From IMG/VR virus record IMGVR_UViG_3300032275_000001, positions 1 through 64,000 of that record: a stretch of DNA of 64,000 bases, one strand, 5' to 3'. A program made the translations under genes and the position numbers. Below are positions 2,692-43,789 of the stretch, piece after piece (the stretch's first letter is position 1; every line of letters begins with the position of its first letter). The notes below the pieces were generated by a model. It saw only the letters and a program-made list of their open reading frames with translations, did not search any database and had not been told where the DNA came from. This DNA comes from a virus.

Positions 2692-3004
2692 CTTTGTCTA
2701 GGTTTAAACTTGCTAATCTATTTTCTAACTCATATTCCACCTTCAAAATGAAACTAATCTTATCCTCAAGCTCTTGTTGAATGATTCTTCCTGCGAATGG
2801 CATAATATCCTGAAGATTTGTATACACTCTAGGTAATCCATATTTGGTTTTGATTTGTTGGTATTTAAATCCAGGGATACATGTAAGATCATTAAACACC
2901 TGATCAACATAAGCTAATACAGAAGGTTCTTCAATAGACATTCCATAATGTCCTTCTTCTAAATAAGCTGCATACTTATAATTAAATTCTTCACTCTTTC
3001 TCAT
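2666..3004 (-). CDS. Hypothetical protein
   Basis: 112 residues, predicted mainly helical (KSEEFNYKYAAYLEEGH at the start, a Leu/Glu-rich helix at 85-105). No family recognised. It lies 12 bases downstream of the gp88-like gene and overlaps the next gene. Confidence 0.6.
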   Translation of the reverse strand: MRKSEEFNYKYAAYLEEGHYGMSIEEPSVLAYVDQVFNDLTCIPGFKYQQIKTKYGLPRVYTNLQDIMPFAGRIIQQELEDKISFILKVEYELENRLASLNLDKDGKSIQPV

Positions 3005-3016
3005 ATTTTTAATTAT

Positions 3017-3694
3017 TTATGTTTTAACTACAAATCCTGATTTGTCTTTCTTAGCTTCTCCTTTTGCATGTAAACCAATTACATGATTAGGAGGATCATA
3101 AAATCTAACATCAGTATCATCTCCATCATATACAGGATAACCATTCCATTCTTTAGGCAAATATACACCTTTTTTTGTATTAAACACAACAGCTACGTTA
3201 TATCCATTATTTAAAGCTATTTCACAATCACGATCATTCATTTCATTTTTACTAAATGTAACGTGATAGTTAGGAATAGCTTTTGTTAAATGTTTAAGCA
3301 CCTTAGTGTAATCATAGAAGTGCACATCTGAATATTGTTCAAAGATGTTAAATCTTATCCAGTTAATATCAGAAGTACCATTAAGTCTTACAGCAGGTAA
3401 CATATTTTCTTTCTTAGCCTTTGCAACAAGACTTTTTATGTCTTTATGTAGCAATTTAAAGAACTCATCTCTCTGCTCAAAGAACATAACAGTCTTCTTT
3501 ATACGAGCTTTTTGTACATTAGAAAATGCTCCCATACCAGAGGTATACAAGCAAGCTTCTGTACAACCTATGCTTCTCATAGGACATACTTCATAACCAG
3601 AGATCTTAGCAGGAGCTAAATATAGTATTCCTGTTAAGATTCCTAGTTTTTCTCCTTTTACAGTTTTGTAATTACTCCTGCTTAATAGTTTCAT
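3017..3694 (-). CDS. Gp88-like phage protein
   Basis: 225 residues from the ATG at 3694. The opening MKLLSRSNYKTVKGEKLG followed by GILYLAPAKISGYEVCPM and the Cys pattern C-x6-C-x3-C, then MGAF...VQKARIKKTVMFFEQRDEFF, matches the Gp88 family of phages, whose biochemical role is unknown. The three conserved cysteines could bind metal. An in-frame ATG at 3727 would add 11 residues inside the preceding gene; the shorter start matches the family N-terminus and leaves a 23-base overlap. Confidence 0.7.
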   Translation of the reverse strand: MKLLSRSNYKTVKGEKLGILTGILYLAPAKISGYEVCPMRSIGCTEACLYTSGMGAFSNVQKARIKKTVMFFEQRDEFFKLLHKDIKSLVAKAKKENMLPAVRLNGTSDINWIRFNIFEQYSDVHFYDYTKVLKHLTKAIPNYHVTFSKNEMNDRDCEIALNNGYNVAVVFNTKKGVYLPKEWNGYPVYDGDDTDVRFYDPPNHVIGLHAKGEAKKDKSGFVVKT

Positions 3695-33484: not shown

Positions 33485-33613
33485 TGATTGTTGAGGTTGG
33501 AACTTTCTTCTCTTAAGTACTCAACACCTTTTTTGTGTAAAAAGGACTTAACATTCGTGGTATGCAAACTACCCAATGTCTGTTACTGTGCTATTTGCGT
33601 CAAGTAACTGCTG

Positions 33614-34029
33614 TGGACTCGGAGGGATTCGAACCCTCGTGTTGCTTACTTCAAAAATACAATTTTATACAGCTTTACGTTTCTTTAAACTCTTTACGTT
33701 AGAAAGGTCAACTAATTAAAGAAGACTCCACCAGAGAGTTTTTTACGTATACTCACAAACTTCTATGGCAAATGTTATAGTCTGTAGCCAGTGTGTGACT
33801 TAATCTCCTAATTCTTAGGTTTAGGCAGCCTCAACTAATTCTCCGAATATAACATCAGATTTAACTTCAGTTCCACCATTTAAGATGTTATGAACTACAG
33901 TCATGTTAGCTTGTACTTGGGCATTCTCTTGTTGTTTGTCATTTAAAATGATTCACCTTAGTTTTATACAGTTATCTCTCTGTGCTGAATTGTATAATCT
34001 ATAATAACCAGTCAATTCCATTCGAGCCC
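33614..34029 (-). ncRNA. ssrA: Putative phage-encoded tmRNA (transfer-messenger RNA)
   Basis: 416 nt. The acceptor stem is 7 bp: GGGCUCG (34029-34023) with CGAGUCC (33621-33615), including the G3-U70 wobble that marks alanine acceptors. Next comes UGGAAUUGACUGG, close to the tmRNA consensus UGGAUUCGACGGG. A P2 helix pairs AUACAAUU-CAGC (33995-33984) with GCUG...AAUUGUAU (33673-33657). The T arm GAGGG-UUCGAAU-CCCUC is perfect (33638-33622). Inside is a reading frame ending VEAA-UAA (stop 33823-33821), followed two bases later by a P5-like hairpin (33819-33807). CCA is not encoded. No protein gene explains this region. Confidence 0.78.
33821..33952 (-). other. tmRNA tag reading frame
   Basis: The frame is open from after a TGA at 33955-33953 to TAA at 33823-33821, up to 43 codons, and ends GELVEAA. 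A GAC codon falls at nucleotide 90 of the RNA, where the E. coli resume codon lies, which would give a tag near 39 residues. A short tag starting at GGA-GAA (33844) would be GELVEAA and matches the GE start of Bacteroidota tags. Which is used cannot be decided from sequence. Confidence 0.5.
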
Positions 34030-34333
34030 ATTATTATTAGCACCCAGTTTATATAGCTTGAATCTCTCAAGTACCATGCCTTATTAGGGTCTATATATAA
34101 ACTTAGGGTCACGTAGTTAATAAAAAAATGATAGGCTTATCAGAACCTTTTTTTAAAAATTAACTACTTGCTGAGAACTCATTACGTGAGTAGAGATAGT
34201 ATCCTATACTCTCTTTTAAATGACTATATTGCTTTCTCAAGGCAACTCACGTTTACATATTACTATGTATATCCAATTTTTATACAGGCTTTCAATGTTT
34301 AGTCCTGTTTTTCTAAAAATAACAATCTTTTTA
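34030..34333. other. Gene-free stretch upstream of the tmRNA
   Basis: No reading frame with coding character on either strand. It should hold the tmRNA promoter, which I could not identify; TAAGTTTA at about 34100 on the minus strand is the nearest -7-like box. CTTGAGAGATTCAAG near 34070 is a small inverted repeat. TCAATGTTTAG at about 34296 recurs at about 34953 on the other side of the HNH gene. Confidence 0.4.
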
Positions 34334-34365
34334 TTTGTTCCTTTGAGAAACATTTATTATATTTG
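34334..34365 (+). promoter_or_regulatory. Promoter TTTG-N20-TATATTTG
   Basis: TTTG (34334-34337), exactly 20 bases, TATATTTG (34358-34365). The HNH ATG is at 34369, so the transcript would be leaderless or nearly so. Confidence 0.6.
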
Positions 34366-34368
34366 TAT

Positions 34369-34872
34369 ATGACTAAAGAAATCCTTAAACAAATGTTAGA
34401 TGATGGTTTAAATACTCAACAAATGGCTGAGATATTAAACTGTACAAGAAGAACTATAAGTAATGCTATTAATAGAAATAACTTAGAGTCTCCACGTAAT
34501 AAAAGTATTAGATTAAATGTTAAGCACTGTGCTGGATGTAAAAAAACATTAGACAGAAGCTTATTTTATACTAAATCTAATAAAAATAGTAGTTTATGTA
34601 AAAGTTGTATTGTTACAAACAATAAAACTAGTAGACAAACTGTAAAGCAACAATGTATAGAATACTTAGGTGGATGTTGTTCTAAATGTGGTTACAATAA
34701 ATGTAACGCTGCTTTAGAGTTTCATCATTTAGATCCAAGCCAAAAAGATAAAAATTATACTAATAATAGATTTTTAAATTTTGAAAAACTTAAACCTGAG
34801 TTAGATAAGTGTGTCCTTCTGTGTGCAAATTGCCATAGAGAAGAACATCACTCATCAACTACTGACATCTAA
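34369..34872 (+). CDS. HNH homing endonuclease, opposite strand to the tmRNA
   Basis: 167 residues. A helix-turn-helix at 1-35 (NTQQMAEILNCTRRTISNAI), two zinc knuckles (CAGCKK; CKSC), then an HNH core CSKCGYNKCNAALEFHHLDP and LCANCHREEHH. It is the only plus-strand gene in the left half, lying between the tmRNA and the gene ending at 35272. A similar 11-base sequence flanks it on both sides, so it looks like an inserted mobile gene. The ATG at 34369 is preferred over TTG at 34363. Confidence 0.85.
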   Translation: MTKEILKQMLDDGLNTQQMAEILNCTRRTISNAINRNNLESPRNKSIRLNVKHCAGCKKTLDRSLFYTKSNKNSSLCKSCIVTNNKTSRQTVKQQCIEYLGGCCSKCGYNKCNAALEFHHLDPSQKDKNYTNNRFLNFEKLKPELDKCVLLCANCHREEHHSSTTDI

Positions 34873-35271
34873 CATACATTACTGCATGTATCTTTATGTA
34901 ATGTTTAATATTTACACCAACACAATTGTTGGGATTATTTCATTACAAAGCATCAATGTTTAGGCTTTTACCAACCTGTGTCTTTCTTGTAGCTTACCGA
35001 GTTATCAGTTACGGAGCTTGTACAAGAGCAGGGTTTCTGGTTTGCTGTCCTTACTATAAACCCTTTTTCGTATGTTACAGCCTAACAGTTAGCATTGGTA
35101 ATCTTTTGTATCATTCTAGTGAGTTTTAAACTGACTACAGTGATATGAAACATAAATGTATAATATAGGTAAGTTCAATGATACGCAGCACATACATTGA
35201 CTATTTAAACTGCTATGTGGCGTTTATAGTTCCCAGTGATTATACAATAATTGCAAATATAATAAATTATA
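34873..35271. other. Gene-free stretch with RNA-like hairpins
   Basis: No confident gene. CCAACACAATTGTTGG (34918-34933) can form a hairpin after the HNH gene. At 34986-35026 there is a larger stem: CTTGT-AGCT-CCG pairing with CGG-AGCT-ACAAG. A minus-strand -7 box TATATTTG (35261-35254) could start a transcript here. A short minus-strand frame (about 35080-34970) is open but has no start codon. Possibly a second structured RNA. Confidence 0.4.
35123..35149 (-). repeat. 27-base dispersed repeat, copy 2
   Basis: Same element as at 32376-32402, with two differences. Both copies lie in non-coding DNA on the same strand. TAGTCAGTT, the core on the minus strand, also occurs around 37873 and 37937 beside another gene start. 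Confidence 0.5.
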
Positions 35272-35886
35272 TTAATAAATTGTTCCTGATGAATTAATAT
35301 TTAAACTAATATCACCCTCTGTTGTATTAGATAATATCTTTCTAACATATATATCAGGATTAGATAACACTGAGTTACATTTGTCGATTGCTGATTGAGC
35401 TTTATCCATTAATTCTTGCTTCATTTTATTGAAACCTAGTTCAAGTAATTGTGGAAGCTCAAGAGCACAATCACCCCATCTAGCAATTAAGAATCTATTT
35501 AAATTCCATGTATAGTCTTTCTCTTTATCAGTTGCTGATTTCCAGTTCCATCCTATTAATAAAGGATCAGGATCAACATCATTGTACCAAATGTGAAAGC
35601 CATCAAACATCTTATTGTCTTTAGCAAACTTATACACTTTCAACACTTCTAATGGAATAGTTGACTTATTATACTTATCAGCGTCCACCTTCATAGGACA
35701 AACAGCTTTTAGTTGCTTCTCCATAGCAAGGTTTAAGCTAACATATATATTAGGTACATTTTGTTCTTCAATATTTGATTGTGTACCAAACCCAAGCTCA
35801 AGTGCTAAGTCATTATACTCAGCTAATTGAACTTCATCTAAAATTAGAGATTCATTTTCTGGCTCTCTGTAAATTTTTACTTCCAT
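35272..35886 (-). CDS. Hypothetical protein
   Basis: 204 residues with an acidic N-terminus and a central YNDVDPDPLLIGWNWKS, then FLIARWGDCALELPQLLELG. No family recognised. It is the last gene before the tmRNA region. Confidence 0.65.
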   Translation of the reverse strand: MEVKIYREPENESLILDEVQLAEYNDLALELGFGTQSNIEEQNVPNIYVSLNLAMEKQLKAVCPMKVDADKYNKSTIPLEVLKVYKFAKDNKMFDGFHIWYNDVDPDPLLIGWNWKSATDKEKDYTWNLNRFLIARWGDCALELPQLLELGFNKMKQELMDKAQSAIDKCNSVLSNPDIYVRKILSNTTEGDISLNINSSGTIY

Positions 35887-41442: not shown

Positions 41443-41765
41443 AGAAAACTACATATATTACAGCGGAGCTAGATTGGAGCGAAGAGCAACTAAAGTCTTG
41501 GAAACAATACGTTGATGCTAATCCTTTACATACATTAGAGGATAGAATCAAATGGAAAGAAACCAAAGCTGGTGGAGCTATGCCTATGGTGATTGCAAGC
41601 ATTGAAGCTCAAGGTAAGTTTGTACAAGAGACAATGAAGAACTACCTAGCTCTCTTAGAACAAGTTGAGAAACTACGTGAGAAAGAAGAAGCAAAGGTGG
41701 TGCCTGTAAGAGGTGGTGTTGAGCTTGGATCTATGGCTGAAGATTTCTTAAAGGGTAGGAAGTAA
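41433..41765 (+). CDS. Candidate small terminase subunit
   Basis: 110 residues, N-terminal helix-rich (LDWSEEQLKSWKQYVDANPL) followed by a coiled-coil (NYLALLEQVEKLREKEEAK). Its stop overlaps the TerL ATG by one base. TerS function is inferred from size, helical content and position; no DNA-binding motif is certain. Confidence 0.5.
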   Translation: MALKKTTYITAELDWSEEQLKSWKQYVDANPLHTLEDRIKWKETKAGGAMPMVIASIEAQGKFVQETMKNYLALLEQVEKLREKEEAKVVPVRGGVELGSMAEDFLKGRK

Positions 41766-43789
41766 TGGATGGCCTTCAAAGTATTGATTACAAAGACTGG
41801 TTTATCAACCAGAAGAGAGTTCCACAAAAAGACTCAGAAGAGTATAAGGAATTCTATGCTTTCCATAAACAACTATGTATGGATGGTTGTACAATGGGAG
41901 GAGTATATATCAATCCTTTTTTATATTGGCATTTAAACTTCTGGAATACAGAGGTAGACATTATAGATGAACGTGGTAGAATATCACAGAAATATGCTAA
42001 CCCATATCTACGTGATAACGAATGGGTTATTACAAATGAAATAGATAGAGCACAAATAGAAAAGAAAGGCCTGGTTATACTAGGCATTCGTCGTTTGGCT
42101 AAGTCAGTAATTGAGAGCAGTTATATAGGTTGGGGAGCTACATTTGATGAGAACTCCCAGAACATTATAGCAGGATTGAATGCTCCCGATATAAAGCTTA
42201 TCACAGATAAGATTGACAAAGGATTAAACTTTTTACCAGAAGCATGGAGATGGCAGAGAGTAGAAGACAATTGGAAAAACCAAGTTACTTTAGGGATCAA
42301 GACAAAAGCAGGAGAGCGAATCCCCTTTTCTCAGATCCTTATTCGTAACTTAGATGGTGGTAATAACGAGGAAGCAATTGCAGGTACTAAACCTAGAAAA
42401 TTAATTATTGATGAGATTGGTAAAGGAAGTTTTCTTAGAGGACTACAAGCTGCAACACCAGGTTTTACTACACCATATGGGTGGGGATGTAGCCCTATCC
42501 TTACAGGTACTGGAGGAGATATGCAGAACTTTATGGATGCTAAGTCTCTTATGTTCGATGTAGAAAATTTCAACTTCCTTACATACAATAACGCTAAAGA
42601 TGATCAGAGAGTACATGGGCTATTTATTTCCCATAAGTACAGAATGGAAGCTAAAGAAGAATCCTCATTAGGAGCCTACCTTGAACAACCTGCAGATTCT
42701 GAATTACACAATGTAAAAATGTTAGTCTCTAATTTAGAGAAAGCAGATAAGATTACAAATGATAACCTTGACAGATTAAAGAAAGCTGGTGATAGACTAG
42801 CTTATTTAAAAGAGAAGATGTATTACCCACAAGAAGTGGATGATATATTCTTGAATGAGGACACAAATATATTTGATATAGAAGCATCTAAACGTCAGAA
42901 AGCCAGACTGCTAGCACAAGAAAGAACAGGAACACCTGTTATTCTTTATGATGATGGACAAGGAGTTAAACATGAGTTTACAGATAAAATGCCTATATCA
43001 AACTTCCCTTTGAAGAATAGTGATAACAAAGAAGCTCCTGTAGTAATATATGAGTTTCCAATTGAAAGTCCTCCTTATGGATTATATGTAGCAGGGATTG
43101 ACCCTTATAGACAGGGAAAGTCTGCTTATTCAAGTTCATTAGGATCTGTATATATATACAAACGTATGCATGCTATTTCTGGAGAGAAGTATCAAGATAT
43201 GTTTGTAGCTAGTTATTGTGCTAGACCAGAGAAGAAAGAAACATGGGAAGAACAAGCACGCTACCTGATTAAATATTACAATGCAAGAGCTCTATGTGAG
43301 AATGACGAAATATCCTTTATAGATTACATGATAGCTAAAGGAGATGCTCATTACCTAGAAAGACAACCTGATTGGTTAAAGGAAATAGTTCCAAACACTA
43401 CCGTAAGAAGAGACTATGGAATACATAGATCTTCTGAGAAAATTAGAGACTTTTTACATGGCTGCCTTAAAAAATATTCAGAAGAAGTTATACATACAGA
43501 GAAAGATGAAGATGGAAACATTAAATCTGAAACAAAAGGTATGTCTAAAATATTTGATCCTGTTCTCCTCGAGGAGATGATACAATATAATGAGACAGGC
43601 AACTTTGATAGAATCATTGCAGCAGAACTAGCAATAGCTCTAGCAATGAAACTAGATCCCATAATGGGAAAAATAGGAGGAGAGCAAGATGTAAGAATGC
43701 AATCAATGTTCACTAAGAACAAAAAGAATACTCTGTTTACACAAAGCAGATCAATGTTTAACACACCAAAAAATAAATTGTTTAGATAA
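41765..43789 (+). CDS. terL: Large terminase subunit (TerL)
   Basis: 674 residues, the packaging ATPase-nuclease. The ATPase domain has GIRRLAKSVIESSYIGWG, a variant Walker A (RRxxKS), and Walker B RKLIIDEIGKGSF. The nuclease domain shows VAGIDPYRQGKSAYSSSLG (RNase H-like first Asp), CENDEISFIDYM and a late KIFDPVLLEEM. Length and order match crAss-like TerL. The downstream gene is a free-standing endonuclease. Confidence 0.88.
   Translation: MDGLQSIDYKDWFINQKRVPQKDSEEYKEFYAFHKQLCMDGCTMGGVYINPFLYWHLNFWNTEVDIIDERGRISQKYANPYLRDNEWVITNEIDRAQIEKKGLVILGIRRLAKSVIESSYIGWGATFDENSQNIIAGLNAPDIKLITDKIDKGLNFLPEAWRWQRVEDNWKNQVTLGIKTKAGERIPFSQILIRNLDGGNNEEAIAGTKPRKLIIDEIGKGSFLRGLQAATPGFTTPYGWGCSPILTGTGGDMQNFMDAKSLMFDVENFNFLTYNNAKDDQRVHGLFISHKYRMEAKEESSLGAYLEQPADSELHNVKMLVSNLEKADKITNDNLDRLKKAGDRLAYLKEKMYYPQEVDDIFLNEDTNIFDIEASKRQKARLLAQERTGTPVILYDDGQGVKHEFTDKMPISNFPLKNSDNKEAPVVIYEFPIESPPYGLYVAGIDPYRQGKSAYSSSLGSVYIYKRMHAISGEKYQDMFVASYCARPEKKETWEEQARYLIKYYNARALCENDEISFIDYMIAKGDAHYLERQPDWLKEIVPNTTVRRDYGIHRSSEKIRDFLHGCLKKYSEEVIHTEKDEDGNIKSETKGMSKIFDPVLLEEMIQYNETGNFDRIIAAELAIALAMKLDPIMGKIGGEQDVRMQSMFTKNKKNTLFTQSRSMFNTPKNKLFR

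What the first reader, a model, noticed from the sequence alone, without database searches (positions are those of the whole stretch)
33614..34029. Phage-encoded tmRNA in a 2-kb gene-free stretch
Five independent tmRNA features line up: a 7-bp acceptor with G3-U70, the UGGAAUUGACUGG element after it, a long-range P2 helix with 12 pairs, a perfect T arm, and an internal frame ending in AA-stop followed by a P5-like hairpin. Phage tmRNAs are known (for example from cluster C mycobacteriophages) but appear rare; I know of none described for this type of phage. It could keep translation going as host ribosomes stall late in infection.
Basis: partly seen in the sequence, partly recalled or inferred. 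Interest (0 to 1): 0.9.

Follow-up and report, generated by a model that had tools for sequence, protein, structure and literature searches.

The report
Phage tmRNA with long conserved tag
A virus of bacteria carries its own ribosome-rescue RNA (tmRNA) which, unlike the bacterial version that adds a 9-residue tag, appears to add a 39-residue tag with an invariant helical motif shared by dozens of related phages, suggesting that phages have turned ribosome rescue to a purpose of their own.

Summary
The finding is real. Window 33614-34029 (minus) is a one-piece tmRNA: ARAGORN calls it, Rfam RF00023 aligns full length (32.6 bits, E 6e-11, under the gathering score), and many related phage loci score 50-93 bits. 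At least 99 distinct homologues share it, with strong covariation in acceptor, T arm and P2, and G3-U70 always kept. Two claims need correcting: the stretch is not gene-free (an HNH endonuclease ORF, small ORFs), and tmRNAs are already annotated in Cellulophaga and crAss-like phages.

Read from the resume codon homologous to that of host tmRNAs, the tag is 39 aa (DKQQENAQVQANMTVVHNILNGGTEVKSDVIFGELVEAA); ARAGORN's 18-aa tag starts too late. Homologous phage tags are 24-49 aa (median 35) and modular. All but one carry Q-x-x-A-N-M, with V and two aliphatic residues after it. Conservation is at protein level (pS 0.62, pN 0.004 at A, N, V). Residues before ANM lack any ATG start. Flavobacteriia host tags are 9 aa (GENNYALAA). 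Most likely: ribosome rescue with host SmpB and AlaRS, adding a degron plus a docking helix whose partner is unknown.

The parts
33614..34029 (-). tmRNA gene, 416 nt without the CCA end
   Evidence: ARAGORN 33613-34029; RF00023 full-length alignment, E 6e-11; homologues in other phages
34023..34029 (-). acceptor stem, 5' strand GGGCUCG (G3 pairs with U70)
   Evidence: sequence; 62/62 homologues keep G3-U70, 11 different acceptor pairings
33614..33621 (-). acceptor stem, 3' strand CGAGUCC plus discriminator A
   Evidence: sequence
33622..33638 (-). T arm GAGGG-UUCGAAU-CCCUC
   Evidence: sequence; 19 T-stem versions among homologues, all 5/5 paired
33984..33995 (-). P2 helix, 5' strand AUACAAUUCAGC
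   Evidence: duplex fold; covariation in an alignment of 25 homologues
33657..33673 (-). P2 helix, 3' strand (GCUG...AAUUGUAU)
33952..33979 (-). conserved block GAGAGATAACTG..AACTAAGGTGAA before the tag (PK1 region); signature of this phage tmRNA lineage
33938..33940 (-). resume codon GAC (Asp), inferred
   Evidence: RF00023 alignment and same position and context as host resume codons..TTTAAAY|GRN
33821..33940 (-). tag reading frame, 39 codons + TAA: DKQQENAQVQANMTVVHNILNGGTEVKSDVIFGELVEAA
   Evidence: in-frame stop 15 nt upstream of the resume codon and no ATG/GTG/TTG before the motif
33881..33919 (-). conserved helical core of the tag, QVQANMTVVHNIL
   Evidence: Q, A, N, M invariant and V nearly so across 37 diverse tags; pS/pN; predicted helix residues 3-22

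Best explanation
It is a working phage tmRNA of a distinct lineage. During infection it would be charged with alanine by the host AlaRS (G3-U70), bound by host SmpB (the phage encodes none), and enter ribosomes stalled on broken or non-stop mRNA. Translation then resumes at GAC in the tmRNA and adds a 39-residue tag instead of the host's 9. The tag keeps the host layout, with a G/D-N/K start and an Ala-Ala end that should act as a ClpXP-type degron, but a 15-40 residue segment is inserted between them. That segment centres on an amphipathic helix, Q-x-x-A-N-M-x-x-V-x-x-[LI]-[LI], most likely a docking surface for a host or phage partner such as a protease adaptor, protease or chaperone, so that rescued polypeptides are routed in a phage-specific way. 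Shown by computation: tmRNA fold, lineage, long reading frame, protein-level conservation. Inferred: expression, charging, tagging, degradation, and the docking role.
For: tmRNA identity: ARAGORN; RF00023 full length; 13 relatives over the gathering score in the two handle searches, up to 93 bits. tmRNA found in 11 of 15 records of 96 kb or more from this phage group, the window's included. Covariation: 62/62 full-length homologues have 7/7 acceptor, 5/5 T arm and G3-U70 with 11 acceptor and 19 T-stem versions; P2 covaries in 25 aligned homologues. Tag start: CM alignment and homologous position to host tags. Tag: 83 unique, 24-49 aa, median 35, 78/83 end in AA, all start G/D then N/K. In loci found without using the tag, 65 of 66 complete tags carry Q..ANM..V..[LI][LIM]. 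A, N, V: pS 0.62, pN 0.004; the frame is specific. In 96/96 an in-frame stop lies upstream with no ATG before the motif; in 42, the window's included, no start codon at all. The motif has 164 six-frame hits in about 7.3 million residues of phage loci, 162 of them in tmRNAs; the other two are copies of one hit at the very start of a contig, where its upstream context is cut off. Host tags are 9 aa and hosts have SmpB, the phage has none. AlphaFold helix 3-22, block pLDDT 75-86. Wildcat phage tmRNA is its most highly expressed lytic gene (PMC7474061).
Against: No transcript, charging or tagging data exist for this lineage here. The window copy is below Rfam's gathering score. The resume codon is assigned by homology only. 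ARAGORN requires a paired acceptor, so 7/7 pairing is partly circular (the covariation is not). The Ala-Ala end is not always preceded by Leu and five tags end otherwise, so degradation is not assured. No partner for the helix was identified; no convincing match in Pfam, PHROGs or PDB.
Confidence: 0.78

Rival explanations
1. Ordinary ribosome rescue: the tag is simply longer, the C-terminal Ala-Ala degron is all that matters, and the extra residues are passive spacer.
For: 78 of 83 tags end in AA; the rest of the tag varies in length and sequence; other phages (phage G, 13 aa; Streptomyces phage Warpy, 11 aa) use short ordinary tags.
Against: The interior Q..ANM..V..[LI][LI] is the most conserved part, invariant at amino-acid level while silent sites are saturated, which a passive spacer would not show.
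Confidence: 0.15
2. The frame is an independent small protein gene starting at the conserved ATG (MTVVHNIL...), overlapping or replacing tmRNA function.
For: The ATG is invariant, and short ATG-initiated ORFs are open.
Against: Conservation extends upstream of the ATG to Q, A and N, which cannot be initiated at an ATG: an in-frame stop lies upstream and no ATG intervenes in any of 96. The tRNA-like domain and P2 are kept by covariation.
Confidence: 0.05
3. Decoy: the RNA mainly sequesters host SmpB or stalls host trans-translation, as proposed for the tRNA-like-domain-only RNA of mycobacteriophage DS6A.
For: A TLD-only RNA inhibits tmRNA, perhaps by titrating SmpB (Mao et al. 2009, as cited in PMC4131195).
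Against: The coding part is intact and under protein-level selection in nearly every copy; a decoy needs no tag.
Confidence: 0.05
4. Relic of integration at a host ssrA gene (attachment site or restored gene copy).
For: tmRNA genes are common attachment sites; suggested for Maribacter phage Panino (PMC11590407).
Against: No tyrosine integrase (PF00589) in this phage or 14 relatives; sequence and tag differ from host tmRNA throughout; the lineage is shared by unrelated phage groups and its signature is absent from the bacterial genomes scanned.
Confidence: 0.02

Closest known systems
Bacterial one-piece tmRNA (SsrA), Rfam RF00023, Flavobacteriia hosts
   Same: tRNA-like domain with G3-U70, P2, PK1 region, resume codon after ..TTTAAAY, tag starting G/D and ending AA-stop
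   Different: host tag 9 aa (GENNYALAA) versus 24-49 aa; host gene about 396-404 nt, compact phage copies about 320 nt despite a 105-nt tag; PK1 sequence differs; low scores against RF00023
Annotated tmRNA of Cellulophaga phage Calle_1 (and unannotated in phi38:1, phi40:1, phi14:2, Flavobacterium phages FpV4 and kin)
   Same: same lineage: same PK1 signature and Q..ANM tag core
   Different: only the gene's presence was noted for Calle (PMC8776804); the long conserved tag is not mentioned in the passages I read; ARAGORN misses FpV4
tmRNAs of crAss-like phages cr273_1 and cr50_1
   Same: phage-borne, in crAss-like phages, tags starting GN
   Different: permuted (two-piece) genes, tags of 15 and 13 aa, no ANM motif
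tmRNAs of Bacillus phage G and Streptomyces phage Warpy
   Same: phage-borne one-piece tmRNA
   Different: short tags AKLNITNNELQVA and ANSNVAFALAA, no motif

Membership tests
tmRNA (SsrA) | 7-bp acceptor stem with G3-U70 (alanine identity) | tested here: met
   sequence; 62/62 homologues, covarying
tmRNA (SsrA) | T arm and tRNA-like 5' motif (UGGAAUUGACUGG) | tested here: met
tmRNA (SsrA) | long-range P2 helix closing the mRNA-like region | tested here: met
   duplex fold; compensatory changes in 25 homologues
tmRNA (SsrA) | internal reading frame without start codon, ending in a stop, encoding a tag | tested here: met
   39 codons + TAA, no start codon before the motif, upstream in-frame stop; protein-level conservation
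tmRNA (SsrA) | match to RF00023 (operational criterion) | tested here: inconclusive
   full-length alignment, E 6e-11, but 32.6 bits < gathering score 47; 13 relatives exceed the cut-off
tmRNA (SsrA) | pseudoknots PK1-PK4 | tested here: inconclusive
   PK1 region strongly conserved; pseudoknots not resolved by the pseudoknot-free fold
tmRNA (SsrA) | partner SmpB available | tested here: inconclusive
   no SmpB (PF01668) in this phage; present in both Flavobacteriia genomes tested; the actual host is unknown
tmRNA (SsrA) | transcription, alanylation, tagging in vivo | not testable with these tools
   needs RNA and protein experiments
typical tmRNA proteolysis tag | short tag (about 10 aa) | tested here: not met
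   39 aa here; 24-49 aa, median 35, in homologues; most frequent known length is 10 aa (PMC11915505)
typical tmRNA proteolysis tag | hydrophobic-Ala-Ala C terminus | tested here: inconclusive
   window ends VEAA (Glu before AA); most homologues VAA, LAA, IAA or MAA

The most novel reading that the evidence does not exclude
A widespread family of phage tmRNAs, carried across unrelated phages of Flavobacteriia, tags rescued polypeptides with a modular 24-49 aa peptide whose invariant amphipathic helix binds a specific host or phage factor. The phage would thus reprogramme trans-translation, for example by routing, sparing or exploiting the products of broken mRNAs under host defence, rather than merely copying the host's rescue RNA.
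Probability: 0.5. Interest if true: 0.88.

Novelty: new variant of a known kind. Interest (0 to 1): 0.74.

Why it matters
tmRNA tags are understood as short degradation signals. A lineage in which the tag has grown three- to five-fold and carries an interior motif conserved at protein level implies a second function for the tag, under selection in phages. It makes 'why do phages carry tmRNA?' testable with cultured phages: Cellulophaga phages phi14:2, phi38:1 and Calle_1 carry the same gene. It also shows that ARAGORN can misplace the tag start or miss such genes and that the window's own copy falls below Rfam's cut-off, so phage tmRNAs of this kind are under-annotated.

Tried and rejected
ARAGORN's 18-aa tag for the window: rejected, because the CM alignment and homology to host resume codons put the start 63 nt earlier, and the conserved motif lies before ARAGORN's start. 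RNA-level explanation of the conserved core: rejected on saturated synonymous change. Small-ORF explanation: rejected on upstream stops and missing ATG. Same lineage in bacterial genomes: the exact signature is absent from genome contigs; one second tmRNA copy in a Flavobacteriaceae genome (G296) is a decayed duplicate of the host gene with the normal GENNYALAA tag. Known protein families or structures for the tag: none convincing. Rfam identity of the upstream structured RNA: none. A 25-aa mycobacteriophage tag recalled from memory found no match in the phage collection, so it is not used. Fetching Bxz1 and Wildcat records by accession failed: not in the collection.

Full report
Observation. 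The Rfam default search of the window reports only one tRNA; with permissive settings RF00023 aligns over its whole length, 32.6 bits, E 6e-11, below the gathering score of 47. The acceptor GGGCUCG/CGAGUCC with G3-U70, the UGGAAUUGACUGG element, the 5/5 T arm, P2 and the AA-stop frame can all be read in the sequence. The surroundings are not gene-free: a 169-aa HNH endonuclease ORF lies at 34363-34872 on the other strand, with small ORFs downstream of the tmRNA.

The phage. The window lies in a 110-kb virus record. Its terminase is 40% identical to that of Leptolyngbya phage Lbo-JY46, 31% to Cellulophaga phages phi17:2 and phi4:1, and 26-30% to gut crAss-like phages, so it is a distant crAss-like phage; a Flavobacteriia host is inferred from tmRNA relatives only. 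Of 15 records of at least 96 kb in this group, the window's included, 11 have a tmRNA by RF00023, many well over the cut-off. Neither RF00023 nor the PK1 signature found it in the other four.

The lineage. With loci from other searches this gave 99 distinct tmRNAs. Known phages with it are Cellulophaga phi14:2 (Steigviridae, Crassvirales), phi38:1, phi40:1 and Calle_1 (Pervagoviridae) and the Flavobacterium Fipvunavirus phages, so different phage groups share it. In 62 full-length copies the acceptor is 7/7 and the T arm 5/5, with G3-U70 in all, while acceptor pairs 4-6 and all T-stem pairs change in compensation (11 acceptor and 19 T-stem versions). ARAGORN demands a paired acceptor, so the covariation, not the pairing, is the evidence. 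P2 covaries in an alignment of 25 compact copies.

The tag. The RF00023 alignment places the resume codon at GAC 33940-33938, which matches the position and ..TTTAAAY|GRN context of host resume codons. Read from there, the window's tag is DKQQENAQVQANMTVVHNILNGGTEVKSDVIFGELVEAA. The same reading in the homologues gives 83 unique tags of 24-49 residues, median 35. All begin G or D then N or K, and 78 end in Ala-Ala. ARAGORN starts the window's tag 63 nt too late and varies its start among close relatives.

Conservation. In loci found by the PK1 pattern alone, without use of the tag, 65 of 66 complete tags contain Q-x-x-A-N-M-x-x-V-x-x-[LI]-[LIM]. At A, N and V the synonymous difference is 0.62 per site and the non-synonymous 0.004; over the ten codons from A it is 0.71 against 0.26; shifted frames lose the contrast. 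Conservation is therefore of the peptide. In all 96 copies with the motif an in-frame stop lies upstream and no ATG intervenes before the motif; in 42, the window's included, no start codon of any kind does. A six-frame scan of the phage loci found the motif 164 times, 162 in tmRNAs; the other two are copies of one hit at the very start of a contig, where its context is cut off.

Shape and modularity. The invariant positions fall on one face of a helix and the core has a higher hydrophobic moment than its shuffles (0.37 against 0.24). AlphaFold gives a helix over residues 3-22 with block pLDDT 75-86, the rest at low confidence. The parts before and after ANM recombine: the module VVHNILNG is seen with ten different N-terminal parts.

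Hosts and other phages. ARAGORN reads 9-aa tags (GENNYALAA, GNEEFALAA, GEGNYALAA and similar, once DNTSYNLAA) in 26 of 29 Bacteroidota tmRNA loci tested, nearly all Flavobacteriia; one further call is a likely misread and two loci are not called, one of which reads GENNYALAA directly. Phage G and Streptomyces phage Warpy have 13- and 11-aa tags, and crAss-like cr273_1 and cr50_1 have permuted genes with 15- and 13-aa tags. Long tags are thus not a general phage trait, although a second tmRNA in Bacteroides sp. 224 has an unrelated 34-aa tag. The tmRNA database paper gives 10 aa as the most frequent length (PMC11915505). I found no report of the long conserved tag in the papers searched; the library lacks most subscription journals.

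Mechanism. The phage encodes no SmpB and no tyrosine integrase. The best reading is trans-translation with host factors, adding a tag that keeps the host's start and degron-like end but carries an inserted docking helix. [quoted passage not shown] The helix's partner is unknown, and degradation, sparing or other routing of the tagged products cannot be decided from sequence.

A second RNA. Upstream of the tmRNA lies an apparently independent structured RNA, described under noticed items.

Noticed in passing
window about 34060-34330 and 34880-35280, minus strand; homologues around TGAGTTCTCAGCAAGTAG in L438, L439, L441, L448, L461, L472, L090, L114: A second conserved structured RNA upstream of the tmRNA, roughly 400 nt in relatives, with no Rfam match. 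The 18-mer occurs in 93 viral stretches; of 64 copies with enough DNA only about 15 have a tmRNA within 3 kb, so it looks independent. Helix GUGUUG/CAACAC and the hairpin around a UGAGAA loop covary (above all shuffles); the loop can pair with UUCUCA downstream (possible pseudoknot); GUAGUUA/UAACUAC is mostly invariant..
   Followed up: partly
window 34363-34872 (+): HNH endonuclease ORF that appears inserted within the structured RNA above: conserved blocks lie on both sides of it and are close together in relatives.
   Followed up: partly
L426:3818-4196 (Bacteroides sp. 224, G109:C52:118817-119195): Second tmRNA (78.9 bits), among five tRNAs, with an unrelated long tag GKNKIKAWGNKVSAKAANVINMFAQPAVRFSAAA, possibly on a mobile element; the only second copy at the cut-off used among 61 genomes of the family.
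   Followed up: partly
L138:2559-2705: The one complete tag in the lineage without ANM: GNIDNDAQEVVDINYTFSTPMMVVHKGERKSVSPSQDLSWGTRQVAIAA, 49 aa, the longest.
   Followed up: no
L004 (Flavobacterium phage FpV4) about 2989-3398: An unannotated tmRNA of this lineage that ARAGORN does not call; the same BLAST match occurs in related F. psychrophilum phages.
   Followed up: yes
window 41765-43789: The terminase's best named match is Leptolyngbya phage Lbo-JY46, recorded from a cyanobacterium, while other relatives infect Bacteroidota.
   Followed up: no
L526:4762-5173 (G296): Decayed second copy of host ssrA 45 kb from the intact one, with the normal tag.
   Followed up: yes
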